Shown here: piece by piece, positions 13,096 through 58,687 of the stretch
Layout of the letters: each line of letters begins with the position of its first letter
How positions within the stretch are numbered: the stretch's first letter is position 1
Origin: Tetrapisispora phaffii CBS 4417
Taxonomy: Eukaryota > Ascomycota > Saccharomycetes > Saccharomycetales > Saccharomycetaceae
DNA length: 64,000 nucleotides
Direction of reading: 5' to 3'
Assembly: GCF_000236905.1 (NCBI RefSeq)
Contig: NC_016521.1
Coordinates: 868,001 to 932,000 of the forward strand
Notes under the pieces: model-generated
Seen by the model: only the letters and a program-made list of their open reading frames with translations
Told to the model about the DNA's origin: nothing
The model's database searches: none
Translations under genes and position numbers: made by a program

Positions 13096-16000
13096 TTTCT
13101 TTTGTTAATGTATGAGTTCTGCGGTAAAGTGTTGTCTCTCTTCTCGTAAAATGATAAAATAATTCAGCAGGATATAATAAAAAACCAACAATGAAATAAT
13201 GTATTTCTTTAAATACTATACGTGTATAAGATTAGTAACAATGATAATTATACTAGGTTGTTAAGTTAGTTAATTGATCTCATTGAATTAATCTCATCTC
13301 ATCGCAAAAATTTTTATTTCCAAATGAAATTTATTACCAGTATGTTAAAATCGGCAAAATTATGTTAGAACTTCTCCCATGGTGGGAAAACATGTAAAAA
13401 AATTTTAAAGTGCTTAATGAAAAATAGACCTCTATACTCAATTATATTAACTGTCCGTATGTTGTGATAATCAATAAGTGACACAGTTATACACATATAT
13501 GTATCTATATATTTATGGATACGCTTATGTATGAACTAATAAAAAAACAAATAAATGAATCGATTGAGTAACAGCATCAATAACTATGTGTGTTTTGTTA
13601 TGCAAATATTTATAGATTGTTTTAAATCTGTCAATTATAATTATATCAACTCGTATTTTAACCATTCTGCTGGTATGATATAATAAGAAGTCTCACAAAA
13701 ATAATGACACTAAAGACAGCATACTATAAATGACAATAATGTAAAATTAATATTTTATTTCTTAATAAGATGGAGAACCTTTGATCAAAGAATTCACTTA
13801 AATCGTTGAAGTATTCTCTACTAAATGCTACTGTCGTTTACTTTATATCAATGTTATCGTTCAGTTTAACTGATTGATATATCAGTACTATAATAATTTG
13901 TCGCCATTACATCGTATTACCATTGGAAGATAGTTAAATCAATTGTAAACCCAGATTATGACACCATGCGTATTCATTGTTGACCACTGACTATAAATAG
14001 ATTGGTTACCCCTAATAAAATTATCATGAGTATGATGTATATATTTTGCTTTATGTTAGTTATTTAGTTAACTCGCACGTATTAGCATAGGTAAAATCAC
14101 TAAGAATATTGGGGTGCTTGTTTCCTTTGTGTATTCTCATAATCCTTCTCAACTTTTATCTACTATATATGACCATAATATTTTTATTCGTCTTATTATT
14201 TATACGTTCATCAATATAGCATGGTATGAATGAGGGTTCCTTGTATTAAGCGTATGAATAATATTGTTAATATTTCTAAATGTCAGACAACCAATGCTTA
14301 CTTGCATCAGGTATTACAGTTATTGTAAATTTTCTATTAGAACGTTTTGAATTTTTAATGGTTCTATACCCGCCAGTGAGCAATGGTTATGTTGATTTTA
14401 TTCTACGAATATATTGAGCTGGTACTAAATTTTAATAAAACCATTCTTGCACGGAGTATGTGTATGATAATTATTGCTTGCTATTTGATTTTGTCTCGGA
14501 TCAAGTATTTTACTGTTCAAGAACAAAAAGACATATATTATCCGAACTAATAATTATTCCGAGAGGGAGACCGAAAGAGTTGTGAGTATCAAGTAATTAA
14601 ATAATCATTGGAAAACCGGAAAAGATTTTTAGCCGGATAAAGGCATAGCTGTATACAAACTTAATCTCAGTATATGTAGATATATTGGATTCAAGTTTAA
14701 AGAGAACCTTGCCGGCACGGCATACATGTTTCTCTATCTCTGTTGATTTCAGAGCACAGAGATAAATAATTATGCGGAGTTTTTTACTTTTTATGTTTGT
14801 TTTTTATTATCTCTCTCTTTCTTGTTGTAACTCTTTTAATTTACGAACAGAATTTGTTCGTATCAAATGCCAATTTAATAAATTTAATTTTAAATTTATA
14901 GGACAGATCATACTTTTAGGTAATAATATATTAACAATAAATTACACGGATAATTATCATCGGATTATTAGTATAGGTAATATTCCGATTATTTTGTTCG
15001 AACGACTAACGAAAACTAAAAATTATCTAGAGAGAAACTTGTACGCAAAGGGGAAGGGTATGAACTTCGAGAAAGACAGAAAAAGATACAGAAAAAACGC
15101 AAAAAAGAAAGGTCACCATCAGTTACTTGTTTTGTGAATACTTACGTTTCATTATTGAACTAATTATGAATAATAAGTGTCCTTCGCACAACACTGTAAA
15201 AAGGAAAAACAATTAAATACGCATTTGAAGTGTTTTAAAGATGAGATATATATATATATTCTTATTACTAATATTATTGTGAGAGAGTTCACCAGTTTTG
15301 GATGTTGATAATAAATAATTAACAAATTGAACAGATTTTGTTTTAGCAGTCCCTCCCGCCCCGTCCAATTGAATAAGAAATAAAAGAAAATTTCATTCAT
15401 CCCTGTCCTTATATTAGGAAACAATAATTCGAAATGATTAAATGTAACTAAAGTAAAAAGTATACAAAACATGAATAATGTATATTCCGGAAATAGTAGA
15501 CCCATACATCCATGTTTATATGTCTGTCTGTATACATAGATCTTTATGTTCACAATTATTTGCATACAGATTCGCTTAGAGAATAAAATAATAATAGTGA
15601 GAATGCGAACTCTATTTTAATTGATTTATGTTGTTTTGTCGTTCGTTCGTTGCTAGCATTGCAATTGTGACGTGCTGTACGTAACAATTACTGAGATAAG
15701 AATATGCCTATACATTTTGTCCTAATGTAGTTCCGCGAAAATTTTCACTTGCATCTTCTTCCGAAAAAATGTCACAAATGGGAAGTATGTGGGTGTGCTA
15801 TCTTGTGTTATAGTAATATAATTCGAATTGCAAGTCATTAGCTTAAATGATACGGCAACGATACGGTCATAACCGTTAGTTTCCTATTCATAAAGAATTG
15901 CATTTAAATATGTTGTCACCATATATTATCCTACGAGCAAATACAATAAATATTTTCCGGAATCAGATCATCCGCGAAACACACAGTTGCGATACTTCAC

Positions 16001-17940
16001 AAAAGAAACTTAAAACTAATTGTTGAAAAATACCGTACATATCAAAGATTAATCCTCCTATATCTTCTCCCTTGCCCTTTCTTCCGATGTCCCGATTAGA
16101 GTACAAGAAAACTGCTTTACATTATCTTTCTCCGCCTTATATTTCAAGTGGGAAAAAAACAGTATATAAAACAGGTGATAAATACGGTAAAAAAAGAAAA
16201 CAGAAAAAAACTGACGAATTAAAACAGCAGGGTGGAATGTGCTAACTATTATAAATGATCCATAACTTTCTTCGGAAATTGCATTTTTCATCGATTTCTG
16301 ATTCCCACGTACTTTTCCTGTGAGGTGATAGCTTATTTTTTTCCTTCTCTCTGTACTTGTCTTTTGCTTCTTAATTCGCTTGGTTTTATCCCTCTCCTCC
16401 TGCCAATGACAGCGTATTATCTACTTACAAATACATAAAACCAAAAACAAGCAACGGTAATTACGCAATAATAGAAAGAAAAAAAACAATGATGCTGAAG
16501 TATGCAAAACAGATGTAAAACAGCGTATAAAGTAAAACAAATATTGCGAATACGCATCATTTCATGCTCTTGACATTTAATTCCTAAAAAGCAATGAATA
16601 TGATTTCATATTATTCTAAAAATATACGAACTCGTTTCCGTGTTACACAATATGCACTTCGCTCAATTTTTTTTTCTTTTGCTATTTTTTTTGCGAAAAT
16701 TAATTTTAAATTTCCGAACTTAACCGGAATTACAACTCATTATTTCAAAAATCTATTAGATCACAAACGAGATTACACAGACACATCCGAACAACTACCA
16801 TAATGTACTGGTGTAAATAAAAATAATTGGGGTTTACTATTCATTGCCATGGTGTTTTGTCAAGTACGAAATCGAAAATATGTATATATATATTACAATA
16901 TATATACATAAACCATTATTCTCTACTAAAAGAAGCGTAGTACGTAAAGCTGAACAAATATATAAGACATTTTGCTGTATACACGCATCCTTCTTAATAC
17001 TATAGGTATGAATGATATGCTTGTTTGATGCTCTTGGAGATTTTTATGGTCTTTTTTATTAGTTCCCAGATTTCTCTGCATGGATATAATCACATTAATA
17101 ATATACGGTAATATTTTGACCAACACCGATTTTAGAACAACATTGTAATGCAACATATATACATAAAATGAAATACATCAGCTTTTAGTATTGCAATCCT
17201 AACGACTATTGGAATAAAGAAAACAATAAGTACCAATGTATAAGAGAACTAAAAGGAAAAAGAAAGGAAAAATATAACTAATGTAATTTCATTTTAACTT
17301 AAAATTCATGATGTAACTAATTAGACTCTTAATGTTCCGTCTCGAGTAAATTAGAAATATTCCGTGTATTCTAATTCCAATCTTATGTCAACGTTAGTTA
17401 GAATAGCTATTATAATCAATAAACAACTTCCAGCCTTTCCTTTAAATATCAAACTTATATATATATACATATATATATATCTATTCTTAACTTTCGATCT
17501 TCATTTAGCATTCATTACAGGTAGATCAAACCCATTGCATTTTTTTTTTATGATTTCAGGTATTGCGCTACTATATTTTTTCTATAAAAGTTGATTGATA
17601 TTTTTTTTCGCAATAACCGGAAAAAGAAAATAATTATTCATAGAAGGCAAAAGAAGGCGATATAAATTTATATGTAGATTTTTTTTCTAGACAACAAAAT
17701 TTTTATACGTACTATTTAAAACTAATTTAAATATTACAATTACGGTCTGATTACAAAAATAATATTAATTTCAAAACCATAATATAATTAATCACTTATA
17801 ATTCACTTCTGTCTTTGTTTTTTTCTATTTGACAATCTATTAAGAAACGAATATTATATTATCTCTATATTGGAAATAGTTCTTCCAAATAAGAGATTGA
17901 AATATATTCGATATAATCAAGGGAAGCTACATTGCAGGTA
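13096..17940. other. 4.8-kb gene-poor region between RLP7 and RFX1
   Basis: This is the longest gene-free stretch in the window. It begins with the RLP7 promoter and ends with the RFX1 upstream region. Open frames inside are short, A+T-driven and unlike known families; the longest with an ATG is 121 codons at 14772-15137. I see no tRNA, LTR or clear centromere motif. TTGCCATGG at 16844-16852 is half of an Rfx1 X-box. A decayed gene, a non-coding RNA or a long regulatory region are all possible. Confidence 0.6.
13293..13315 (-). promoter_or_regulatory. PAC box next to RRPE-like element at RLP7
   Basis: On the minus strand GCGATGAG (13298-13305) is an exact PAC core, extended to GCGATGAGATGAG through 13293. 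It directly abuts AAAAATTTTT (13306-13315), an RRPE-like core. The pair lies about 200-220 bp upstream of the RLP7 ATG, the usual arrangement at ribosome-biogenesis genes bound by Dot6/Tod6 and Stb3. Confidence 0.75.
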
Positions 17941-20460
17941 ATGTCAAATACTCAAACTATTATTTATAATAACAATATACGTTCAGATAATCAAGTGTGG
18001 AGCTTTAATATGAACAATAACAATAATAATAAGAGTAGTAGTAGTAATAATATTATGAATAATTTGAATAATTATCCATATTCACCACCGTTTAATCCAA
18101 GTAATAATGGAATTAGTAATAATATCGTTCCAAATAATAATTCAAATTCAAATTTGAGATTCATATCTCCAATCAATAATACTTTCGATAATAGTAACAA
18201 AAGTGGTAACAATAGTCCAACTGTTGATACTAGGTACAGATCACTGCCGTCTCCATTACTAAGCACAAAAGATAGCAATAACTACAGCATCAATAATAAT
18301 ATATTACAAGGTTATGATAATAAACCATATATACCAACAATATTGAGCAACAGTAGTTCTGGATCTAATGGCACAGCTGCTCCTGCTCCTGCTCCTGTTA
18401 ATATAAATAAGCTGCCATTTTCATTGCCACCAACTGCTATTTCATCATCACAGAATCTACAAGTTAATAATCCATTAAATAACCATATTGGAATGGCTAG
18501 GCCACTTATTACAAAACCAACTATAAATAGTCAAAATATTGTAAATCAAAATGGAAGTCATATGCCTTACCAAAATGGCTATAATGAATTACCTCATCTA
18601 CGAAGAACTATTCCAGAAATAATGAACCAGCACCAAGCATTCAATAATTCAAATGCTAGCATTATCGTAACTTCAAATTCTGCACAGTATTCAATGCAAG
18701 CTCAGAAATTCCATACACAAATAATGAATTCAAATACAAGAAAAAATACTCAAGAAACTATAGCTAAGTCAATCGCAGAAAAATACAAAGATAAACCAAT
18801 TTCTGAATATGTTCCAATAGTGAGAAATTCAGAAATGGAATTTTTAAAGTTAAATTCAAAAACTCATTCCAAATCTACAATTCAGATTGCTGAACAAATG
18901 CGTAAAAAAGAAAGGCAAGTTTATGCTTTTATTTGGTTAATGCAAAATTGTGTATCTGATGAAACCAGTTTTGTTCCAAGAGGTAGAATCTTTTCACAAT
19001 ATGCTTCATCATGTGTACATAATTCTTTGAAACCACTATCACAAGCATCTTTAGGGAAACTGATTAGATCTGTATTTCCAAATTTAAAAACAAGAAGATT
19101 AGGTATGAGAGGTCAATCTAAATATCATTATTGCGGTTTGAAACTTGCAAATGATACTCAAACTCAAAATGAGATATTGAGTGATGAAGATAGTGTTATT
19201 AGTACTGATAAAAAGTCAAACATAATAATCAGTGGTGCTTCTGAAAATTTGCCTGGTAGCCCAATAAATGGCTCCGAAGATCCAAATAATGAATCAAAAT
19301 TGCAATATCTTTCTCCAAATACTAAATCTGATATGGATGGTTCATTTTCAAATGATAACAGCTCTTTGGAAAATGATGATATTTTTTCACCTTCTTCTAA
19401 TAATTCATCCAATTCTCCTTCAAGATATTGTAAAGATAAGCAACCAACTATCACCAATAATGATGAAATACTAATATATCTTTATTCAGGTAATGACTTG
19501 CCATTTGTTAATGGTAACCTATACGATGTAATTTTCAATGATGACGAGGTGAAATCTTCTAATTTCAATCTAAAATATCCTCAAATTCCTTTAGAATTAT
19601 TAAAAGATGATATGGATAGAGACATTGTGTCTTCTCTGGAATCTATGTATTATGCTCATTGTAATACATTGTACCAAAATATTCGCTATTTAAAATTTGA
19701 TGAAATTGAAAATTCTTTATCAATATTCAGTTCAGGATCGATTTCTCCGCAAATGTATAATTTATTCATTTCGAATAAGTTGAGTGATTGGGTAGCAGAA
19801 TGTGATATGATCGTACATTCCTATCTGGTAAAGTTTCTATCAAGTATGCTAGTTAATCACTTCATTGACCAACAAGATGGTACTTTGTCGGAACTTTCTT
19901 TAAAAAATCTAGAACAATTTGCAGATTCATATTCTAATATGCTTGAGAAATCAATTATCGATTTACCAAGAACTACTGCTAATAAGAAATTAAATATTGC
20001 TAAAATGTTTTCAAGATTATTAAAAAAATTAATATCTTTGCTACGGATAATTAAAACATTCAGCACCACAATCGTTACCATAAAAGAAATGGATGAGGAC
20101 ACATTATCTGTGATTGATTTTGATAATGTAATGGATATTCTTGATTCAGATGTTACACCAGATAGAAGAATAGAGATTAGAAATTTTGTTATTACTGAAA
20201 TGCAAGCTTTCATCAATGACATAAATAGTGATAATAATGAAACTTCAAATGCTGATAAAGGTGAAATGATCTTCTCTCGTATAGCAAAATCCCTTTGTGA
20301 TTTATTTTCAAAACTAGAGAATACACCTGTGATAAAAATTATGTGCAATGCAGTTAGAATTACGGATTCATTGATGACCGAACTTTCCATAAAACCTGTT
20401 GATAATCTTTTGCCATGGTTTTTATACAATACACTGTCACATCATTTATTTTTTATTTAG
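17941..20460 (+). CDS. RFX1: Rfx1/Crt1, RFX-family DNA-damage repressor
   Basis: Rfx1 (Crt1) binds X-box sequences and recruits Tup1-Ssn6 to repress ribonucleotide reductase genes until the Mec1-Rad53-Dun1 checkpoint releases it. The 839-residue product is close to the 811 of S. cerevisiae. Residues about 326-402 are a full RFX winged-helix domain (VYAFIWLMQNCV, PRGRIFSQYASSC, LGKLIRSVFPNLKTRRLGMR, SKYHYCGL). The N-terminal ~280 residues are Asn/Ser-rich low-complexity sequence. The C-terminal half fits the conserved RFX extension. The frame is open upstream to a TTG at 17932; the ATG at 17941 (MSNTQTIIY) is the start used. In S. cerevisiae RFX1 (YLR176C) neighbours CBF5, which lies 14 kb away here. 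Confidence 0.93.
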   Translation: MSNTQTIIYNNNIRSDNQVWSFNMNNNNNNKSSSSNNIMNNLNNYPYSPPFNPSNNGISNNIVPNNNSNSNLRFISPINNTFDNSNKSGNNSPTVDTRYRSLPSPLLSTKDSNNYSINNNILQGYDNKPYIPTILSNSSSGSNGTAAPAPAPVNINKLPFSLPPTAISSSQNLQVNNPLNNHIGMARPLITKPTINSQNIVNQNGSHMPYQNGYNELPHLRRTIPEIMNQHQAFNNSNASIIVTSNSAQYSMQAQKFHTQIMNSNTRKNTQETIAKSIAEKYKDKPISEYVPIVRNSEMEFLKLNSKTHSKSTIQIAEQMRKKERQVYAFIWLMQNCVSDETSFVPRGRIFSQYASSCVHNSLKPLSQASLGKLIRSVFPNLKTRRLGMRGQSKYHYCGLKLANDTQTQNEILSDEDSVISTDKKSNIIISGASENLPGSPINGSEDPNNESKLQYLSPNTKSDMDGSFSNDNSSLENDDIFSPSSNNSSNSPSRYCKDKQPTITNNDEILIYLYSGNDLPFVNGNLYDVIFNDDEVKSSNFNLKYPQIPLELLKDDMDRDIVSSLESMYYAHCNTLYQNIRYLKFDEIENSLSIFSSGSISPQMYNLFISNKLSDWVAECDMIVHSYLVKFLSSMLVNHFIDQQDGTLSELSLKNLEQFADSYSNMLEKSIIDLPRTTANKKLNIAKMFSRLLKKLISLLRIIKTFSTTIVTIKEMDEDTLSVIDFDNVMDILDSDVTPDRRIEIRNFVITEMQAFINDINSDNNETSNADKGEMIFSRIAKSLCDLFSKLENTPVIKIMCNAVRITDSLMTELSIKPVDNLLPWFLYNTLSHHLFFI

Positions 20461-25509: not shown

Positions 25510-26469
25510 ATGTCAATTAATCCTGCTACTGTTCAACCTGTTTCATATGTTGGTTTTGATACCATCACAAGTCAAATAGAGCACCGTCTCCTTAAAAAAG
25601 GATTTGCTTTTAATATAATGGCCGTAGGTCAATCTGGTCTAGGTAAAAGTACATTATTAAATTCATTATTCTCATCACATCTTATTGACTCAGCTACTGG
25701 TGGTGAGATTTCCAAATTACCAATCACAAAAACAACAGAAATTACAGTTTCTTCTCACACTTTACAAGAAGATAGAGTTCAATTAAAGGTTAACGTCATT
25801 GATACACCTGGTTTTGGTGATTTCATCGACAATAATAGAGCTTGGGATCCAATTGTTAAATATATAAAAGAACAACATTCCTTATATTTACGTAAAGAAC
25901 TAACTACCAACCGTGAAAGACATATCACTGACAGTAGAGTCCATGCTCTTTTGTATTTTATAAAACCAAATGGATCAGGATTGAAAGACCTAGATATCGA
26001 AGCTTTAAAAAAATTAACTGAAATTGCAAATGTCATTCCGGTTATTGCTAAAGCTGATACTTTAACTATTACTGAAAGAAATGAATTCAGAAGTATACTA
26101 CAGGAGGACTTCATTAAACATGACTTAAAAATGTATCCATACGATGACAACGATCTAACTGAGGAAGAGTTAGAATTAAACAAAAGTATAAGGTCAATTA
26201 TTCCTTTTGCCGTTGTTGGTTCGGAGACCGATGTCGAACTGAATGGTGAAACATTTAAAGGTAGAAAAACTAGATGGGGTGTCCTTAATATTGAAGACAT
26301 TGATCAATGTGAATTCGTTTATTTAAGAGAATTTTTAATTAGAACTCATTTACAAGATTTAATTGAATCAACTTCGTTTGTTCATTACGAGAGCTTCAGA
26401 TCTAGACAATTAATTGCTTTAAAAGAAACAGCCTCAAACCGTAACTCTGTACCAATGACACAACGTTAG
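25510..26469 (+). CDS. CDC10: Cdc10, septin
   Basis: Cdc10 is the central septin of the Cdc11-Cdc12-Cdc3-Cdc10 rod that forms filaments and the ring at the bud neck. The 319-residue protein (322 in S. cerevisiae) starts close to VQPVSYVGFDTITSQIEHRL. It carries the P-loop GQSGLGKS at 40-47, the G3 motif DTPG at 98-101, a G4 motif AKAD near 180-183 and the septin unique element around VELNGETFKGRKTRWG. It lacks the C-terminal coiled coil of other septins, a known Cdc10 trait. It is the YCR002C ortholog, the first named gene right of CEN3 in S. cerevisiae. Confidence 0.97.
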   Translation: MSINPATVQPVSYVGFDTITSQIEHRLLKKGFAFNIMAVGQSGLGKSTLLNSLFSSHLIDSATGGEISKLPITKTTEITVSSHTLQEDRVQLKVNVIDTPGFGDFIDNNRAWDPIVKYIKEQHSLYLRKELTTNRERHITDSRVHALLYFIKPNGSGLKDLDIEALKKLTEIANVIPVIAKADTLTITERNEFRSILQEDFIKHDLKMYPYDDNDLTEEELELNKSIRSIIPFAVVGSETDVELNGETFKGRKTRWGVLNIEDIDQCEFVYLREFLIRTHLQDLIESTSFVHYESFRSRQLIALKETASNRNSVPMTQR

Positions 26470-27973
26470 TTACAAATAATGTTAGAATCCAATGTGGATA
26501 TAAAAATGAATAGGACAGCTTAAACACAAATTAGGTTCATTATATTATATAGATATTTAATATAAATAACACCATCAAAAATGCTAAAAATAAACTATAA
26601 AGGCTTATTTATATAATTTATATGCTCTATATGATTTATATAATTAATACAATTAAAAAACACTTTAAAATTAAATTAATTCTTTCATTTCTATGTAATT
26701 TTTCTTAATTTGTTTAGAAAAAAAGATTAAAGATAATTAACATATAAGTGGAATTCATCTTCAAACAATAATAACAAATAACATTGGTTTGCAGGCAACA
26801 AGAAAATAACATATAACAATAAAAGATTATTCGCGTAATAGGATAATAAAAAACAAATAAAAGCGAAAAAATAACACATAATTATCATCTACTTGTACAA
26901 TGTTTATCTGTTCGGATACTTCATTTTAACATAACTATAACTTCACATTATTTAATATTATTAACTGTAAGCAGATAATATTATAGGATATTAATTACTT
27001 TGTTTATTAAAGTTTTAGAATATTGTAATAAGAAATTAATTAAATAAAATATGTAAGTTATATCATGTGATAGACTATTATCATTTTGAAATTAGTTTAT
27101 TTGTTAGGATATATTATTCTTCTACGCATAAAAGATATAATTGTTGTAATAATTTCATTTGTGATAATATTTCAATGGCACGGATATAATAGTTTTGTAT
27201 TTATCTAAATCTTTAATCAACTGTTGCTACAGTTTGGATTTCTATATATGAGAATTTAACTAATTAGCATTATCATGTTTCTAATATGAAGTACTTTCTA
27301 AGTTCATTATACTATTTTGGCCATCGATAAGACGGAGAAGAAATCCTGTTTATATAGATGACAGATAAATATATTATTCACATATCTTTAATTTTAATCT
27401 AGTGGAATATCTAATTGAAACATTAATTAGAAGAGTTAGATCTATTATATATTATATTTGATATTAGTTTTTTCCGTAACGACTAAAAGAAGCCATTAAA
27501 TCTTATAACTTTTATGTCTCAAAATAAATAGTGAATCTAGCACAATGAATATAAATATTAAATAAAGTTAAGGTAAGTATTTTATTTTCTTGTTTTTAAT
27601 GATAACGATAGTTTATGAAAATGAAATTTCATTTTTATATTAATAAAGTAACTTATTCTACCAAATTATTGTCTACTATTTTTCATATTGTTCATGGAAG
27701 TAAAATGTTTATCTGTTTCAGTTTATGAACTACATTGATTAATTATACTGTTTTTCCTAAATGCTGATGAACCAATTGCCCATCTATTTTATTAGTATTT
27801 AGCAGTTTGAAACCTTTTTTTATGTTTCATTCATAGATTATTTATGACTTCATAGCATGGTAAAACGAGTCCTTGATCGAAATTTCATTTTCATCAGCTA
27901 AGTAGCTTAACAAGTTTAGCTGTAATAATGAATATAACTTTTTAAAATCTATCTAATTTTCTAATTTCGGACA
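26470..27973. other. Very A+T-rich convergent intergenic region
   Basis: This 1.5-kb stretch between the 3' ends of CDC10 and the unknown gene has no open frame of note and is among the most A+T-rich DNA of the window. S. cerevisiae has CEN3 close to this side of CDC10. CATGTGAT at 27064-27071 matches a CDEI (Cbf1) site. Two weak centromere-like arrangements are discussed in the findings. MRPL32, the other S. cerevisiae neighbour of CDC10, is absent. Confidence 0.6.
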
Positions 27974-29581
27974 TTAAGTAATTGTCCAAATGACAAAGAA
28001 TGAAAGCTTTAAAGTATCCGTCATTTGAATAATAATATGTATATTGGGTCGGCATTTCCTGAATAAACCTGTGAATGTATGAAGGGATTTTATTATCGTG
28101 GTTTTCTTTTTATTATTGTGGTAGAAGTTTGGGTTGATGTGACTTAGCTTTGATCTTAACTCTAGTAAAGAGAAAAATAAAGCCCACGGAAACTCTACTC
28201 CGTATGTATGTATGACATTGAGCAGAAGTTTCCAACATTGCAATAAATTACTGTCTGACTGTTTTTGGAAAAAGCAAGGAATCAAATCGTAAAATATGTT
28301 CATTAACCCAATCCTATCCAGTTTCATATAATCACAATCTCTATAACTGTATCCAGTATTTATTCTAAGTTCATTATAAATACCTCTAAGATTATAAACT
28401 TGTTTTTCGTGAAGTTGTTGCGATATTCCTGAATATTGAAAGAAATCATGATTTCTATGAAAACCATGGGTTAAATGTGCGTTGTTCTTTATTATTTTAT
28501 CTTCAATTATTTGTAATTTTCTATTCCAGGAACAACAGTTATCATTTGTTACATCCCAATATAGGTCTTTATGGTTTAGAAGGCTTTTATATAAATACAT
28601 TTGGTAATTTTCTTTAGTTTCACCATTTTCTTTCGTGGGATCAAAACATTTGATATCAACATCATATGTACAGTCTTTTTTATTAGTTTTATTATCAAAT
28701 TGATATTCATTGACAAATCTGATATTTGCTACATTATTATTCGCAATACCTGTGTTAGTTTTAGTTACATTGGTATATGAAGTAGTATCAAAGAAAAACA
28801 GATCAGAACTTATATTTTTCAGATCAAGGTTATGCAGTCTATTGTAAATTTTATGTAGATACTCAATACGGTCAATTAAATATTCATCTAACTCATCCAC
28901 AATGTTAGTTTTGAAATTAAAATTACTTTGCAAATGTAAAATCTCGTTTTTGCTTAAAGTGGTAACGTATATGGGGTGTTGATTAAAATGATATTCAACC
29001 TTCTTATCTTGGGGAGAATTTTTGCAATTACTATAGCATTTAATAATGATTTCATTTTTTAGCTTATAAACTGTCAATAACAAAGCCCAAGGAAATATAA
29101 GGACATATCTTGAAATGATTGTTTTCAAATCTTCCCAAAGTCTCAACGTAAACTTTTCATTTGAAATCTCCTCAAAATAGGGAAGAATCGATAATAATTC
29201 ATTCATGACAACCTTTTTACATTTTTCCTCATTAGTTTCCAACGCATTTCTATTAATATTTTTTTTTTTGGTATATAAATTTGAATAGCGGCATGCCGTT
29301 AATAAATATTCGTTGACTTGTGATGTTGTATTATTCCAACGAAGAGCATCCTCATAAGAGATAAGTAGACGATTAGTTGGGTCTTTCTTATATTTACCAT
29401 ATTCCTCCCACTTTTCAATTTTATCATCAAATAAAATTTCTCCATAAAACTTCTTCTTTCTACATTTTGATTTTAGATCAAAATATAATATATTGTAATC
29501 GACTGAACGTGGTTTAACTTTCATTGATTTATGAAAATCAGTGAAATTTACAGGGTCGGATTGAATTGGTAATCTTTGCAT
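27974..29581 (-). CDS. Unrecognised 535-residue protein with internal duplication
   Basis: I do not recognise this protein. It is a complete frame with an ATG at 29581, a stop at 27974 and codon use like its neighbours. It has no signal peptide or clear membrane segment and is rich in Asn, Lys, Tyr and Trp/Cys patches. Two similar segments are visible: about 146-178 (RLWEDLKTIISR then IFPWALLLTVYKLKNEI) and about 452-486 (QCWKLLLNVIHTYG then EFPWALFFSLLELRSKL). Each is preceded by a similar stretch (MNELLSILPYF and MNIFYDLIPCF), so the protein looks like two diverged halves of one module joined by a variable middle. Its position between CDC10 and LDB16 corresponds to the CEN3 neighbourhood, where S. 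cerevisiae has only small dubious genes. A lineage-specific gene is most likely. Confidence 0.75.
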   Translation of the reverse strand: MQRLPIQSDPVNFTDFHKSMKVKPRSVDYNILYFDLKSKCRKKKFYGEILFDDKIEKWEEYGKYKKDPTNRLLISYEDALRWNNTTSQVNEYLLTACRYSNLYTKKKNINRNALETNEEKCKKVVMNELLSILPYFEEISNEKFTLRLWEDLKTIISRYVLIFPWALLLTVYKLKNEIIIKCYSNCKNSPQDKKVEYHFNQHPIYVTTLSKNEILHLQSNFNFKTNIVDELDEYLIDRIEYLHKIYNRLHNLDLKNISSDLFFFDTTSYTNVTKTNTGIANNNVANIRFVNEYQFDNKTNKKDCTYDVDIKCFDPTKENGETKENYQMYLYKSLLNHKDLYWDVTNDNCCSWNRKLQIIEDKIIKNNAHLTHGFHRNHDFFQYSGISQQLHEKQVYNLRGIYNELRINTGYSYRDCDYMKLDRIGLMNIFYDLIPCFFQKQSDSNLLQCWKLLLNVIHTYGVEFPWALFFSLLELRSKLSHINPNFYHNNKKKTTIIKSLHTFTGLFRKCRPNIHIIIQMTDTLKLSFFVIWTIT

Positions 29582-30461
29582 TGTTAGTTTCTGTTAACTT
29601 ATGTATTGTTACTGTTCACATTAACATGAACTTATATATGGAAGAAAAAATAAGTTAAATTTCTCGAAAATCTTGATTACTGAAATATTATATATGCATC
29701 CGGTTGTAAATTCAATCAATTTTTTATCAAAGAATCTTTAGAGTTATGATGCAGGTTTGTGTTTCCAAAGTCCCTGATGACAAAAAATATAACTCTGACG
29801 CTGGTACAAAAAGCAAGCTTCTAGTAATCTGAAAAATCTTAGAATTTTGATGAAAAGTGCTAGTAATATCATATACTAAGCAGATACTCAAAGTGAGCGT
29901 CTCCAACTTAGGTGAACAATGGGGTAGCTTTGGGTCAATGATTACATTGCCAATAGATCAGATAACAAGTATGTCATAACCGCATTAGTGAACAAATCAT
30001 TTAAAGGATCAAAATATATACGAAATCTAGTTGGAAATGTTATCGTGCAATTATTAATAGTATAGGAAATCAGCAGGTATATAAAGAACAAGTAACTATT
30101 TACTTCATTACTTACAGCGATAATGTATCCCTAAACAGATTACATGAAGAGAATTGATTGGTCGTTATTACCAAAATACATCAATCTTAAAAACTGCTAT
30201 TAAAGAGAGTCAAGCTTAGTTCATTTTATATATTGTATATATCAGACAATTATATTGTAAATAATCTCAAGTGTTTATTAGAAACCTCAGCATCTAAGTT
30301 AGGGCTATTCTTGCTCAAAAGATGAATTCATTGCTTTAATATATTAAAATGTGGTTAAGTTATATACTATATAATTAGATTAATCTCTCTGGTCTCTTGG
30401 ACCTGGATCAATGAATTGTTAACTATTGATTACCGGGTTTATATGTACATAATATTTCAAT

Positions 30462-30513
30462 CTGCCGTTCTGTCCACTCGAGACGAGGTCGTCGAGTTGA
30501 ACACGTACGGCAG
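30462..30513. repeat. Nested inverted repeats upstream of tRNA-Arg
   Basis: CTGCCGT (30462-30468) pairs with ACGGCAG (30507-30513), and inside it ACTCGA (30476-30481) pairs with TCGAGT (30492-30497). Both are exact. The region is distinctly more G+C-rich than its surroundings. It could form a stacked stem in RNA or be a regulatory dyad. Confidence 0.7.
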
Positions 30514-30583
30514 GCTGATGGTTCTACAGTACTATTTATGCATTAGAAATTCTGCTATTACATTCTTGCAGGCACTATTGTTT

Positions 30584-30748
30584 CAGGTTTGCAACAATAA
30601 TCTCCTAAAAAGGTAATATCTGGTATCGTATAGTCACTTATACGGCCAGTGGCATTTCCAACAGTCTCAGGTTTGTAACAACACTTTCCTTAAGAGGCAA
30701 TCTAGCATAGTATAGTTCGTTATACGTCCGGTGCCATTTCTCATAGTA
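30584..30748. repeat. Diverged tandem duplication, period 84 bp
   Basis: A unit starting CAGGTTTGCAACAA at 30584 recurs as CAGGTTTGTAACAA at 30668. Further matching blocks follow in the same order: TCGTATAGT / TAGTATAGT, TTATACGGCC / TTATACGTCC and TGGCATTTC / TGCCATTTC. The second copy ends about 64 bp before tRNA-Arg. The spacing is constant within one or two bases. Confidence 0.75.
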
Positions 30749-30811: not shown

Positions 30812-30883
30812 GCTCGCGTGGCGTAATGGCAACGCGTCTGACTTCTAATCAGAAGATTGAGGGTTCGACCCCCTCCGTGAGTG
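30812..30883 (+). tRNA. tRNA-Arg (anticodon UCU)
   Basis: The 72-nt gene folds as a cloverleaf: acceptor strands GCTCGCG/CGTGAGT, A box TGGCGTAATGG, anticodon loop CTTCTAA with TCT, and B box GGTTCGACCCC. There is no intron. A T run follows directly (from about 30892), as expected for a Pol III terminator. It is nearly identical to the S. cerevisiae tRNA-Arg(UCU) I recall. Confidence 0.97.
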
Positions 30884-31050
30884 CTTACTTTCTTTTTTTT
30901 CACAGAGTAAAATTTCACTTAAAAGATATTGGTCTATAGATTTATTTTTATGACATTGGGTATATAACTAAAAAATAATTCTGATGCAGAAAAACCAAAT
31001 TCAATTATCTATATAAATTTAAGTTATGAAATATTCAATTTGTTATATTA

Positions 31051-32193
31051 TTATTTCTTTTTCCTATTTTTGAGTTTGTTCAAAATTCTCTGTTCTGAAT
31101 TGATATTAGTGGCTATTCCCATTGAGAGACCCATTGATGTACCTTCTTCATTTTCTGTTCTCAACGTTGATGGTATATCATCAAAACGATCCCATATGTT
31201 TGACATCGATGTTTCCACTTCCTCTTCCTCTTCCTCTTCCTCTTCCTCTTCCTCTTCCTCTTCCTCTTCCTCTTCCTCTTCTTCTTTGTTATTATTATGC
31301 GTATCCAGAGGATCTTTGGATGAGTTCCTTCGAATGTATATTGTTTTAGTATCTTTATTGACTAAGACAGGTGTTGTAGTTTCATTTTCTTGAAAGTAAT
31401 TACTTGGTAGAATTGATGCCAATTCCAAAGCATCCTCTTTTGATGAGACTGAACTTCTTGTTCTGGTAGAGTTAACTGCTTTCCATCCACTAAGTGAATC
31501 CCTCTTTCCTGATTTTTGATGGTGCTGGTCTTCATATTTTTCTATATTTAGAGACAAATGTGTAGGTGATCTTGGGGGCGTCAGAGTACCTGTTGAATTT
31601 AAATTTATTGACATATCCTTAGTGTTGTTTGAACTAGAGGAAAATGGTCTTCTGAAATTATAAATGTTCCCAAATGTCTTAAAAATATAATCAGTAACCT
31701 TATTTATTTTCTGTTTCACAGATGGAATCCAACGTAAAATAATATTAGGAAAATCAATATAGATACCTGGAATCCTTATTGTAGAATGCAAGAGCCCTAG
31801 AATTGATCCTAAGAATAACCCGATTATGGAACCTGCTAAGAACAAAACCAATGTATATTGCAACATAGTTGTGAAGAGATAAAAACTTTCCTTTTTGTCA
31901 ACACCTGTAACTAATTCTTGAATTGTATAATTGAAGAAAATGCGTAGTGGGATATTTAAAGGTAACATCAAATATTGAAACGTTGTTCGCAGCAATATCG
32001 ATAGTGGTGTAAAAAGTAATATTCCCACTAGTGTATACCACGTTATAAATGCTTGCTTTATTAAATTTGTGTATATCCAAACTAACATTGTTTCAATTAG
32101 TCTGAGGATAAAGCATACAAAACTAAAGGAGAAGATGAGTATACCTTTAAAGGTTCTAGTTCCTACTTGTGTGAGTTCAAGTAAATTTATCAT
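31051..32193 (-). CDS. LDB16: Ldb16, seipin partner at lipid droplets
   Basis: Ldb16 forms a complex with seipin (Sei1) at ER-lipid-droplet contacts. The assignment rests mainly on synteny with VMA9 (YCL005W-A next to YCL005W) and on the layout: an N-terminal part with several hydrophobic segments (about residues 14-34, 40-70 and 108-140) and a hydrophilic Ser-rich tail. The product has 380 residues from the ATG at 32193, longer than the 256 of S. cerevisiae. The extra length is mostly a low-complexity tail with a run of about 25 glutamates encoded by a (TTCCTC)n repeat. The frame is open further upstream to a TTG at 32298, but the first ATG is at 32193. I did not recognise strong sequence identity. 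Confidence 0.75.
   Translation of the reverse strand: MINLLELTQVGTRTFKGILIFSFSFVCFILRLIETMLVWIYTNLIKQAFITWYTLVGILLFTPLSILLRTTFQYLMLPLNIPLRIFFNYTIQELVTGVDKKESFYLFTTMLQYTLVLFLAGSIIGLFLGSILGLLHSTIRIPGIYIDFPNIILRWIPSVKQKINKVTDYIFKTFGNIYNFRRPFSSSSNNTKDMSINLNSTGTLTPPRSPTHLSLNIEKYEDQHHQKSGKRDSLSGWKAVNSTRTRSSVSSKEDALELASILPSNYFQENETTTPVLVNKDTKTIYIRRNSSKDPLDTHNNNKEEEEEEEEEEEEEEEEEEEEEEVETSMSNIWDRFDDIPSTLRTENEEGTSMGLSMGIATNINSEQRILNKLKNRKKK
31214..31288. repeat. (TTCCTC)n hexanucleotide repeat coding for poly-Glu
   Basis: A near-perfect TTCCTC array of about 75 bp lies inside LDB16 and encodes alternating GAA and GAG codons on the minus strand. Length variation would be expected between strains. Confidence 0.9.
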
Positions 32194-48289: not shown

Positions 48290-48592
48290 TGCTGGTTGTT
48301 TTATTCGAGTTACTGATTGTGAGGATCAATATAGTGTTACGTTTATTGTTAAACTTAAATATGAATTTCAACTAGCTCATCGATTTATTTGATTTGAAAT
48401 TTTTTTTATCGCTAAAGATTCATGATCGTGATATTCACATTTTCGTACATGATGAGGTTATTTCTCCCCATCGATGAATAATTCTATTTAATTTTAAGGT
48501 AAGAAAAGAGACACTTTGTAAAGGAAGATACATAATGCTAAGGCCATGGATTTTAATATATTGTACACAAGCTATAAAACACGAGATTCCAT
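48290..48592. other. RPC34 promoter and CTO1 downstream region
   Basis: The 303-bp spacer holds the RPC34 promoter with a PAC-like box at 48374-48382. SWM2, the S. cerevisiae neighbour of RPC34 (YNR004W), is not present here. Confidence 0.65.
48374..48401 (-). promoter_or_regulatory. PAC-like box with T-rich RRPE-like element at RPC34
   Basis: On the minus strand CGATGAGCT (48382-48374) matches 9 of 10 positions of the long PAC form GCGATGAGCT. An AAATTT-type run follows upstream (about 48395-48405 on the plus strand). The box lies about 90 bp from the ATG. PAC was first named from RNA polymerase I and III subunit genes. Confidence 0.6.
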
Positions 48593-49606
48593 TTAAATTA
48601 TTAATTTTACAAAAACGTTCCAATTTTTGGCAAGGTATACATACCTATCACTTCCTTTATATTTTTCAAAGAGTTTAACAAATTGAACATTCTCATTTTG
48701 AATATAATTTTTTATAACTTCATTATTAGCATTTAATAAGTTTCTTACGATTTTCAAAAATTTAACTTTATTTTTTTCTGAACTCGAAGGATCTAATAAC
48801 AATATTCCATTGACATCAGGTTGCAATATACTTAATAAATCAGTCTCACTATCACCTACGAACCACAGTAGTTTCCCAGAAGCGTTGTATTTCTGAGATA
48901 AATTATTTAATATCCTAAATTTATCTGACCCAGTAACAGAGTTTCTACTAAAATCGCCTGTGTAAAATTCTTCGTTTGAATGATCCAATAGTAAATCGTT
49001 GCAATAAATGTTTTCCAATTTAATTGTTTCATCTTTTGATTTATCATGAATTCCATTAATCAAATTATAAATAAATTCCTTTGACCAATTAATTGAAATG
49101 ATATAGAGATTATTTTCATCTTTATTTGCCTTCCTAAATTCAAAGATATAGTGTTTGAATTCTTTTCTGATCAGATTAGATCCATTTTGGTCTAATGATT
49201 TTAAATAATTTTTCAAATCATCAATTGAGATTCCTGCAAAGGTACCATTATTTACAATATTATCAACAGATTTCAACTCAATTAATTCTTTCAGTTCATC
49301 TTGATACTGTATCTCAGCATTTAATTTACTTAAATAGTTTACTCTGGTATTATTTTGATCAAATTCAAGGATTGGTAATTTTCTTTTGATACTATTTATA
49401 TTCTTTGAATATACTTCCATATAATAATTCACAAAATACTCCCAATCAGGAATACTTTTTAAGGGAGCATTCGATTGACATTTGTTATTGCTCGATCTAT
49501 AAGCTTGTGATCTTACGAAATAGGGCAACTTAGATAGCACTGCAATTGTATCATCGTATGTAATAGTTTCATCAAAATCGGCTATGATAATATTTCTATT
49601 TGTCAT
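48593..49606 (-). CDS. CTO1: Cto1-like HAD-family phosphatase
   Basis: This is a haloacid-dehalogenase-type hydrolase related to S. cerevisiae Cto1 (YCR015C, 317 residues), a gene tied to cold tolerance whose substrate is unknown. The 337-residue product opens with the HAD nucleophile motif ADFDETITY (Asp10, Asp12) and ends its Rossmann core with the metal motif WFVGDSETDLLSI. A helical cap lies between them (about 60-190). There is no signal peptide. Position after ADY2 and beside RPC34 matches the merged YCR010C-YCR015C and YNR003C order; ADP1, PGK1 and POL4, which lie between in S. cerevisiae, are missing. Confidence 0.85.
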   Translation of the reverse strand: MTNRNIIIADFDETITYDDTIAVLSKLPYFVRSQAYRSSNNKCQSNAPLKSIPDWEYFVNYYMEVYSKNINSIKRKLPILEFDQNNTRVNYLSKLNAEIQYQDELKELIELKSVDNIVNNGTFAGISIDDLKNYLKSLDQNGSNLIRKEFKHYIFEFRKANKDENNLYIISINWSKEFIYNLINGIHDKSKDETIKLENIYCNDLLLDHSNEEFYTGDFSRNSVTGSDKFRILNNLSQKYNASGKLLWFVGDSETDLLSILQPDVNGILLLDPSSSEKNKVKFLKIVRNLLNANNEVIKNYIQNENVQFVKLFEKYKGSDRYVYLAKNWNVFVKLII

Positions 49607-57733: not shown

Positions 57734-58687
57734 TTAAAAAATATATAACGTCAATACACAGCCAACGAGACCAATGAATAACGGCAATTGGCCCAGGGCG
57801 TCTTTGTATAGTTCCGCAAATGTGCGTAGTTCTTCGTAGTGACAAAGACTTTTTGGAATCTGCAGAGCTTGAGAGTGACCCGATAGGGTGTAGGCAAAGC
57901 CAATTTTGACTACTGAGAAGATCATTGGGTCGAATTCCATTGAAGGTAAGTCGTATCTTATAAAATTAAAATAGTAGCTCACTAGACACGGAATGGCAAT
58001 AGCCACTGTGAACCACAACAGAATGTTTGGAACCACTATCATTAAATTTTCTTTCACATCCAAATCGTCACAAGCTGGGTAATGAGACAGAAGATATTTG
58101 AAGAATATAGTGAATTCTACTAAATGCAGAATAAATGCGATAGAATAGACGGTTGATAAATAGTCTTGCACGTTTTCGTTCCATTGTTGTAGCTTCAAGA
58201 CGATTCTTTGCAACGGAGTGTGCTCTTCCATGGCTAACAAATCATCCAGTTCGCTTTGCAGCTCATCCGCATCCAGAGCATCTTCGTCTTCCAGGTCTTC
58301 ATCCGAACGATACACGTACTCCTCGTCTTCTTGAGAATGGATACCTTCATCGTCGGCAGTTTTCTTTGGCAACAGTCTTGTGAAGTCGATGAAATTCGAC
58401 ATTTTACTCCTGTTTGCCTCATTTGAATCGTCAAGTGAGGCCGAGTCGTCTTCTTCTTTCTTCAGTTCCTTCCCATCATGTTTCTGGTTGGAATAGAATT
58501 CAACCAGTTCTGGGTACTCGAGCACATCGTCCAGTGGAGTGTCCAAAGTCTTCAAATGATTCTCCAACAAGCCGATAAGTTCCGTTTTCTTCAACGAATA
58601 GGGAATATCATTGACTTTTAATTTTTCAATTAAATCCAAGATGGCTGTTTTATTCCATCTGCTGAATACTGATTTCTTGGTGCTCAT
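57734..58687 (-). CDS. GTT3: Gtt3-like membrane protein with SAP-type N-terminus
   Basis: This is the ortholog, by position and layout, of S. cerevisiae Gtt3 (YEL017W, 337 residues), a membrane protein reported to associate with glutathione transferases; its molecular function is unknown. The 317-residue product has a SAP-like helix pair at about 10-45 (NKTAILDLIEKLKVNDIPYS), a strongly acidic middle (about 110-150), and hydrophobic segments at about 185-205, 220-245 and 300-317 at the very C-terminus. The frame opens upstream to a TTG at 58696, so the ATG at 58687 (MSTKKSVFSRW) is the start. Divergence from PMP2 is the same as in S. cerevisiae. Confidence 0.85.
   Translation of the reverse strand: MSTKKSVFSRWNKTAILDLIEKLKVNDIPYSLKKTELIGLLENHLKTLDTPLDDVLEYPELVEFYSNQKHDGKELKKEEDDSASLDDSNEANRSKMSNFIDFTRLLPKKTADDEGIHSQEDEEYVYRSDEDLEDEDALDADELQSELDDLLAMEEHTPLQRIVLKLQQWNENVQDYLSTVYSIAFILHLVEFTIFFKYLLSHYPACDDLDVKENLMIVVPNILLWFTVAIAIPCLVSYYFNFIRYDLPSMEFDPMIFSVVKIGFAYTLSGHSQALQIPKSLCHYEELRTFAELYKDALGQLPLFIGLVGCVLTLYIF

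What the first reader, a model, noticed from the sequence alone, without database searches (positions are those of the whole stretch)
27974..29581. Unrecognised gene with two copies of one module, next to the ancestral centromere position
The 535-residue protein shows two similar segments about 305 residues apart (IFPWALLLTVYKLKNEI and EFPWALFFSLLELRSKL), each preceded by MNELLSILPYF or MNIFYDLIPCF. No family comes to mind. Every other complete gene in the window has an S. cerevisiae counterpart or a K. lactis one, so this is the strongest candidate for something new or lineage-specific.
Basis: partly seen in the sequence, partly recalled or inferred. Interest (0 to 1): 0.75.

Follow-up and report, generated by a model that had tools for sequence, protein, structure and literature searches.

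The report
Fast-evolving yeast gene beside a centromere
This is a real yeast gene with an internally repeated segment, sitting about 900 bases from a probable centromere, and it is most likely a member of the little-understood Centroid family of spore-formation genes rather than something wholly new.

Summary
Window 27974-29581 (minus strand) is an open gene of 535 codons in which a 54-residue module occurs twice (residues 125-178 and 426-479; BLASTP E 3e-07; strongest self-match of 23 window proteins). No Pfam, NCBIfam or PDB relative was found. A 5.8-billion-protein search found only the gene itself, but my one positive control, a neighbouring gene, found nothing either, so this says little. 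The stop codon lies 903 bp from a candidate point centromere (26911-27071), with a septin (CDC10-like) gene on its other side. Best explanation: a member of the Centroid family (YNL018C/YNL034W; Salzberg et al. 2022, PMC9731477), fast-evolving, centromere-linked sporulation genes with no known domain. Placement, length and lack of domains fit; a promoter proxy gave no support. The decisive sequence comparison could not be run, because no Centroid sequence was available. A Sir1/Kos3 identity was tested and not supported. I could not tell whether this gene is already among the 28 listed non-Saccharomyces members. Verdict: probable member of a known, poorly understood family.

The parts
27974..29581 (-). 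gene X, 535 codons, no recognised domain
29048..29209 (-). module 1 (residues 125-178)
   Evidence: self-match 125-178 against 426-479; E 3e-07
28145..28306 (-). module 2 (residues 426-479)
27945..28109 (-). open stretch in another frame overlapping the gene's 3' end; resembles the sequence that follows module 1, so the annotated C-terminus may be out of frame
   Evidence: score 45 against shuffle mean 28 (56 of 5000 and 17 of 2000 shuffles reach it); the in-frame tail gives nothing; suggestive only
26911..27071 (-). candidate point centromere: ATCACATG box, A+T-rich spacer (85%), CCGAA core
   Evidence: against:
25510..26469 (+). septin gene (CDC10-like) on the other side of the candidate centromere
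   Evidence: Pfam Septin 2e-104; the name CDC10 is recalled
30311..30663 (-). LTR-like repeat of about 352 bp upstream of gene X; 41 other near-full-length matches in the genome
   Evidence: 40 of 110 candidates scored; that it is an LTR is inferred from size, copy number and the adjacent tRNA
30812..30884 (+). tRNA-Arg (TCT)
31051..32193 (-). next gene, LDB16-like by recall and order only

Best explanation
Gene X is a member, or a derived relative, of the Centroid family (founders YNL018C/YNL034W of S. cerevisiae): a protein made during sporulation that works at the periphery of the prospore membrane and is needed for spores to form. In X the two helical modules probably act as two copies of one protein-binding unit in an otherwise poorly conserved chain, so that the protein can bridge two partners or two copies of one partner. 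Shown here: the gene, the duplicated module, and its place beside a candidate centromere. Inferred: family membership, sporulation role, prospore-membrane site, and bridging.
For: Salzberg et al. 2022 (PMC9731477; outline, sections 12, 15, 17, 22 and passages seen) describe a Saccharomycetaceae-only family with no predicted domain. It is so divergent that many members miss each other in BLASTP. Members characteristically are singletons in YGOB, vary from 212 to 1,291 residues, mostly share one peptide motif at very different positions, and 16 of 18 plotted members lie within 60 kb of a centromere. Members are reported in Vanderwaltozyma polyspora and T. blattae. X matches: 535 residues, no domain, one motif-sized module at two positions, a stop codon 903 bp from a candidate centromere, and only itself found in its own genome (2 first-look candidates scored). 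The centromere call is supported by two other sites of the same design on other contigs; one lies beside a Thiamine_BP gene, consistent (by recall) with ECM15, which PMC12711049 places beside ancestral CEN3 (passage).
Against: No Centroid sequence was available, so homology was never tested; it is not known that the Centroid motif resembles this module. PMC9731477 reports no family members in some Saccharomycetaceae, such as C. glabrata and K. lactis, so presence in a given species is not a given. No full Ndt80 site (CRCAAAW, consensus recalled) lies in the 600 bp upstream; there is one CACAAAC at -180, and that six-base core is expected 0.57 times by chance. The own-genome search with one module did not complete. 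The centromere is a prediction, and proximity is one gene's worth of evidence.
Confidence: 0.6

Rival explanations
1. X is a different lineage-restricted fast-evolving gene, or a badly diverged orthologue of some named yeast gene, that happens to lie by the centromere.
For: No match at the sensitivity available. An LTR-like repeat and a tRNA lie next door, the kind of place where unrelated genes can land. One neighbour also lacks hits, so divergence or poor coverage could hide a known orthologue.
Against: It leaves the coincidence of orphan status, duplicated motif and a distance of 0.9 kb from a candidate centromere unexplained.
Confidence: 0.28
2. X is a Sir1/Kos3-type silencing protein with two ORC-interacting regions.
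For: Sir1 carries a duplicated region (the N-terminal part of my recalled Sir1 scores 130 against its OIR) and the family evolves fast (passages of PMC2994660 and PMC6405483); a short resemblance at residues 57-68 of X.
Against: The Sir1 OIR (my recalled letters confirmed by 1zbx_B) scores 34 against X, the shuffle mean (491 of 1000 reach it); the whole recalled Sir1 scores 49 (305 of 1000 reach it); HMMs of two and of three Sir1 regions score below zero bits; the Pfam scans list no Sir1 family (that Pfam holds one is recalled; the direct family search of the genome did not complete). The resemblance is not in the duplicated module. V. polyspora is said to lack Sir1 (PMC6405483, passage).
Confidence: 0.03
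3. X derives from a mobile element or plasmid captured near the LTR-like repeat.
For: An LTR-like repeat lies about 730 bp upstream; the gene is rich in A+T.
Against: No second copy of the repeat was listed inside the window (40 of 110 candidates scored), only X itself was found in its genome, there is no Pfam element domain, and no bacterial-plasmid or viral-contig match; synonymous codon use correlates 0.90 with the other window genes.
Confidence: 0.04
4. X is a decaying gene: its 3' end is shifted out of frame, so it may be a recent pseudogene or an assembly error in a working gene (the latter is compatible with the best explanation).
For: Past module 2 the sequence resembling the post-module-1 region lies in another frame, where codon scores also slightly favour it in one window (-0.05 against -0.16). 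Yeast genomes sequenced with Roche 454 carried frameshift errors (PMC3507789, passages); that this assembly is of that kind is recalled.
Against: The support is moderate (56 of 5000 and 17 of 2000 shuffles, with two alternative frames to choose from); the 535 codons have no internal stop, so decay would be very recent.
Confidence: 0.05

Closest known systems
Centroid gene family (YNL018C/YNL034W), PMC9731477
   Same: Centromere-linked, no known domain, no relative found, length in range, a motif at variable positions
   Different: Sequence homology not tested. X lies about 0.9 kb from its candidate centromere, whereas the paper gives 28 and 58 kb for the two S. cerevisiae genes and a median of 18.3 kb in Z. 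rouxii. X has two copies of its module; copy numbers in other members were not seen.
Sir1/Kos3 silencing proteins
   Same: Fast-evolving; Sir1 has an internal duplication
   Different: No sequence similarity to X beyond chance; the duplicated unit in X is another one

Membership tests
Centroid | Sequence homology to Ynl018c or the shared MEME motif 1 | not testable with these tools
   S1 File and S7 Fig are supplements, supplement look-ups are capped at 0, and no tool used here gave a Centroid sequence
Centroid | Location near a centromere (16 of 18 within 60 kb) | tested here: met
   Candidate centromere 26911-27071, 903 bp from the stop codon; itself a sequence-based prediction
Centroid | No predicted protein domain | tested here: met
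   Pfam best E 9 for the whole protein; the two short modules no match, longer pieces nothing better than E 0.06; NCBIfam, a prokaryote library, none
Centroid | Length 212-1,291 residues | tested here: met
   535 residues
Centroid | No homologues outside Saccharomycetaceae; singleton | tested here: inconclusive
   Only itself in 5.8 billion proteins, but the positive control also found nothing
Centroid | Sporulation-specific expression | tested here: inconclusive
   No expression data; no full Ndt80 site in 600 bp, one partial at -180, at the chance level
Centroid | Required for spore formation; prospore membrane | not testable with these tools
   needs experiment
Sir1/Kos3 | ORC-interacting region similar to the Sir1 stretch in 1zbx | tested here: not met
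   no Sir1 family in the Pfam scans

The most novel reading that the evidence does not exclude
X is not Centroid but an independent, lineage-born gene recruited to the edge of a point centromere, built on a duplicated helical module of unknown fold. That would mean centromere edges repeatedly gather new fast-evolving genes, and that the Centroid location bias is a property of the site rather than of one family.
Probability: 0.15. Interest if true: 0.6.

Novelty: new member of a known kind. Interest (0 to 1): 0.4.

Why it matters
Centroid genes are essential for spore formation in baker's yeast, yet neither their mechanism nor their preference for centromeres is explained (PMC9731477). A member under 1 kb from a centromere, with its module present twice in one chain, would give a minimal unit to define, a better profile for finding missed members, and a sharper test of why these genes stay near centromeres. 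If X proves unrelated, the case for centromere edges as a cradle of new genes would grow.

Tried and rejected
Sir1/Kos3 idea: rejected. Whole-half duplication: not supported outside the module. Third module copy or other copies in the window: none found. Profile A1 against 1369 ORF pieces of the window and fetched loci (loci L001, L002 and L013 left out because they repeat the window) gave only X above the inclusion threshold; module 1 alone also gave one piece at E 0.0067 (48478-48675, plus strand, partly opposite a gene end) and module 2 alone one at E 0.024, both taken as chance. Full-length AlphaFold2 model: unusable (mean pLDDT 34.5). Module 1 model (two sequences): best of five models pLDDT 64.6, the other four 40-48, so even 'all-helical' is tentative. 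Foldseek found nothing at E<=0.001; VIA-align gave only middling Z (best 7.0), led by designed helical proteins with SNARE bundles among the top rows, so no fold is assigned. PDB sequence matches were at E 0.52 or worse (none in 63). Mobile-element or viral origin: no support. Intron or classical slippery site at the 3' frame change: looked for by eye in the sequence, none seen. Positive control for the protein search: the neighbour 31051-32193 gave no hit, not even itself, so absence of homologues proves little. S. cerevisiae-like centromere patterns alone do not mark the site: the CDEIII-like pattern with up to 2 mismatches has 9 window matches (8.6 expected), none at the candidate, and the CDEI box 7 (5.9 expected). 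Paper searches for the Centroid genes: one search listed 10 of 56 papers and only PMC9731477 held the term 'Centroid gene'; one search listed 11 papers naming YNL018C or YNL034W (listing only). The main text of PMC9731477 names no Tetrapisispora phaffii gene. The organism, probably Tetrapisispora phaffii (12.1 Mb in 17 contigs), is recalled and unproven; one search did not settle it.

Full report
Observation. The gene is real: 535 codons at 27974-29581 on the minus strand. Codon scores favour this frame over the other five. Its mean codon score is the lowest of the 23 window genes compared, though the other 22 trained the score; its synonymous codon use correlates 0.90 with the rest. The gene names in those scripts are my recall. 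Of 9 neighbours scanned with Pfam, 6 reach a curated cut-off (septin, L30-type, Dcc1, mitochondrial carrier, MFS, flavodoxin); 31051-32193, 48593-49606 and 57734-58687 do not.

Duplication. Residues 125-178 and 426-479 match without a gap, score 83, next diagonal 31; 0 of 1000 shuffles reached the observed score in each of six tests, the closest shuffle scoring 82. BLASTP of the two halves gives E 3e-07 with 15 of 54 identical. Among the 22 other window proteins the best self-match is 59. The shared residues include the run FPWAL. The N-terminal flanks of the two modules do not align beyond chance. On the C-terminal side, the annotated tail after module 2 shows no likeness to the stretch after module 1, but an overlapping open stretch in another frame (27945-28109) does: score 45, reached by 56 of 5000 shuffles and by 17 of 2000 in a second run. 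With two frames to choose from this is suggestive only; it would extend the module to about 120 residues and would mean that the annotated C-terminus is out of frame through an assembly error or a recent change.

Structure. The whole protein cannot be modelled from one sequence. Module 1 with module 2 as its only partner gives an all-helical model, mean pLDDT 64.6 and pTM 0.55 in the best of five models; the other four have mean pLDDT 40 to 48. Structure searches give no assignment.

Surroundings. Between the septin gene and X lies, on the minus strand, ATCACATG, then 148 bases, then CCGAA (26911-27071); 135 of the bases between are 85% A+T. PMC3141009 (passages) gives CCGAA as invariant in CDEIII and CDEII as 76-98% A+T, which the site meets. 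It prints CDEI as NNCAVBTG; ATCACATG does not meet the B at position six, but it does meet the S. cerevisiae consensus RTCACRTG as I recall it. An S. cerevisiae-like CDEIII pattern with up to two mismatches does not pick the site out, and RTCACRTG alone is no commoner than chance in the window. The combination is rare: order-1 resampled sequences gave none in 150 windows or in 3000 copies of the intergenic stretch. Genome-wide, a wider pattern has 21 matches, no more than its reversed control (18) within noise (the first, narrower one 5 against 8); only 3 of the 21 have a spacer of 85% A+T or more, the next being 72% (the spacers of the control matches were not examined). The three lie on three different contigs. 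The one on C1 is beside a trehalase end and a Thiamine_BP gene; PMC12711049 places ECM15 (Anc_3.206) beside ancestral CEN3 (passage), and that ECM15 is the Thiamine_BP protein is recalled. The one on C13 lies between a Pirin and a HlyIII gene. The pattern finds only three sites in a genome of 17 contigs, so it is incomplete. PMC3141009 Table 1 (passage) maps ancestral CEN1 to S. cerevisiae CEN3 and CEN14; that CDC10 adjoins CEN3 is recalled. X's stop codon is 903 bp from the ATCACATG box. Upstream lie an LTR-like repeat with 41 other near-full-length matches, 90-95% identical (40 of 110 candidates scored), and a tRNA-Arg.

Relatives. Pfam, NCBIfam, the Protein Data Bank, viral contigs and plasmids give nothing significant. 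The large protein collection returns only X (7652 candidates, 4). The third search, spent on the neighbouring gene as a control, returned nothing at all among 5134 candidates, so I do not claim that X is unique. In its own genome X is alone among the two candidates scored, even at E 10. A genome search with one module was asked ten times and never answered.

Identity. A literature search on centromeres and chromosome number led to Salzberg et al. 2022 (PMC9731477; outline, sections 12, 15, 17, 22 and passages seen). The Centroid family is Saccharomycetaceae-only, extremely divergent, without predicted domains, characteristically singleton in gene-order maps, variable in length, with one peptide motif in most members at varying positions, and preferentially near centromeres. 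Its founders are expressed in sporulation, Ynl018c is at the periphery of the prospore membrane, and the pair is essential for spore formation. Members are reported in Vanderwaltozyma polyspora and T. blattae, but not in C. glabrata or K. lactis. X fits on location, length and lack of domains; orphan status could not be tested well, and the promoter proxy gave no support (no full CRCAAAW site in 600 bp, one CACAAAC at -180). The sequence test could not be run, so membership is a proposal at 0.6.

Mechanism. By analogy, X would act at the prospore membrane during spore formation; two copies of a helical module in one chain suggest a bridging or scaffold role. All of this is inference. The paper tested meiotic drive by Centroid genes and found no support for it.

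Verdict. The gene is most likely a new or already listed member of a known but mysterious family; whether it is among the 28 listed could not be checked.

Noticed in passing
window 26911-27071 (-): Candidate point centromere (ATCACATG, 85% A+T spacer, CCGAA); sites of the same design at G000:C1:1010366-1010525 and G000:C13:57179-57327.
   Followed up: partly
window 30311-30663 (-): LTR-like repeat of about 352 bp beside tRNA-Arg with 41 other near-full-length matches, 90-95% identical, in this genome.
   Followed up: partly
window 13096-17940: Long stretch with no ATG-started ORF over 133 codons between an L30-type gene and the gene at 17941 (RFX1 by recall); not examined further.
   Followed up: no
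window 31051-32193 (-): LDB16-like protein (by recall) with a run of glutamates; nothing found in the 5.8 billion protein collection, so that collection is poor for this lineage or this gene is very divergent.
   Followed up: partly
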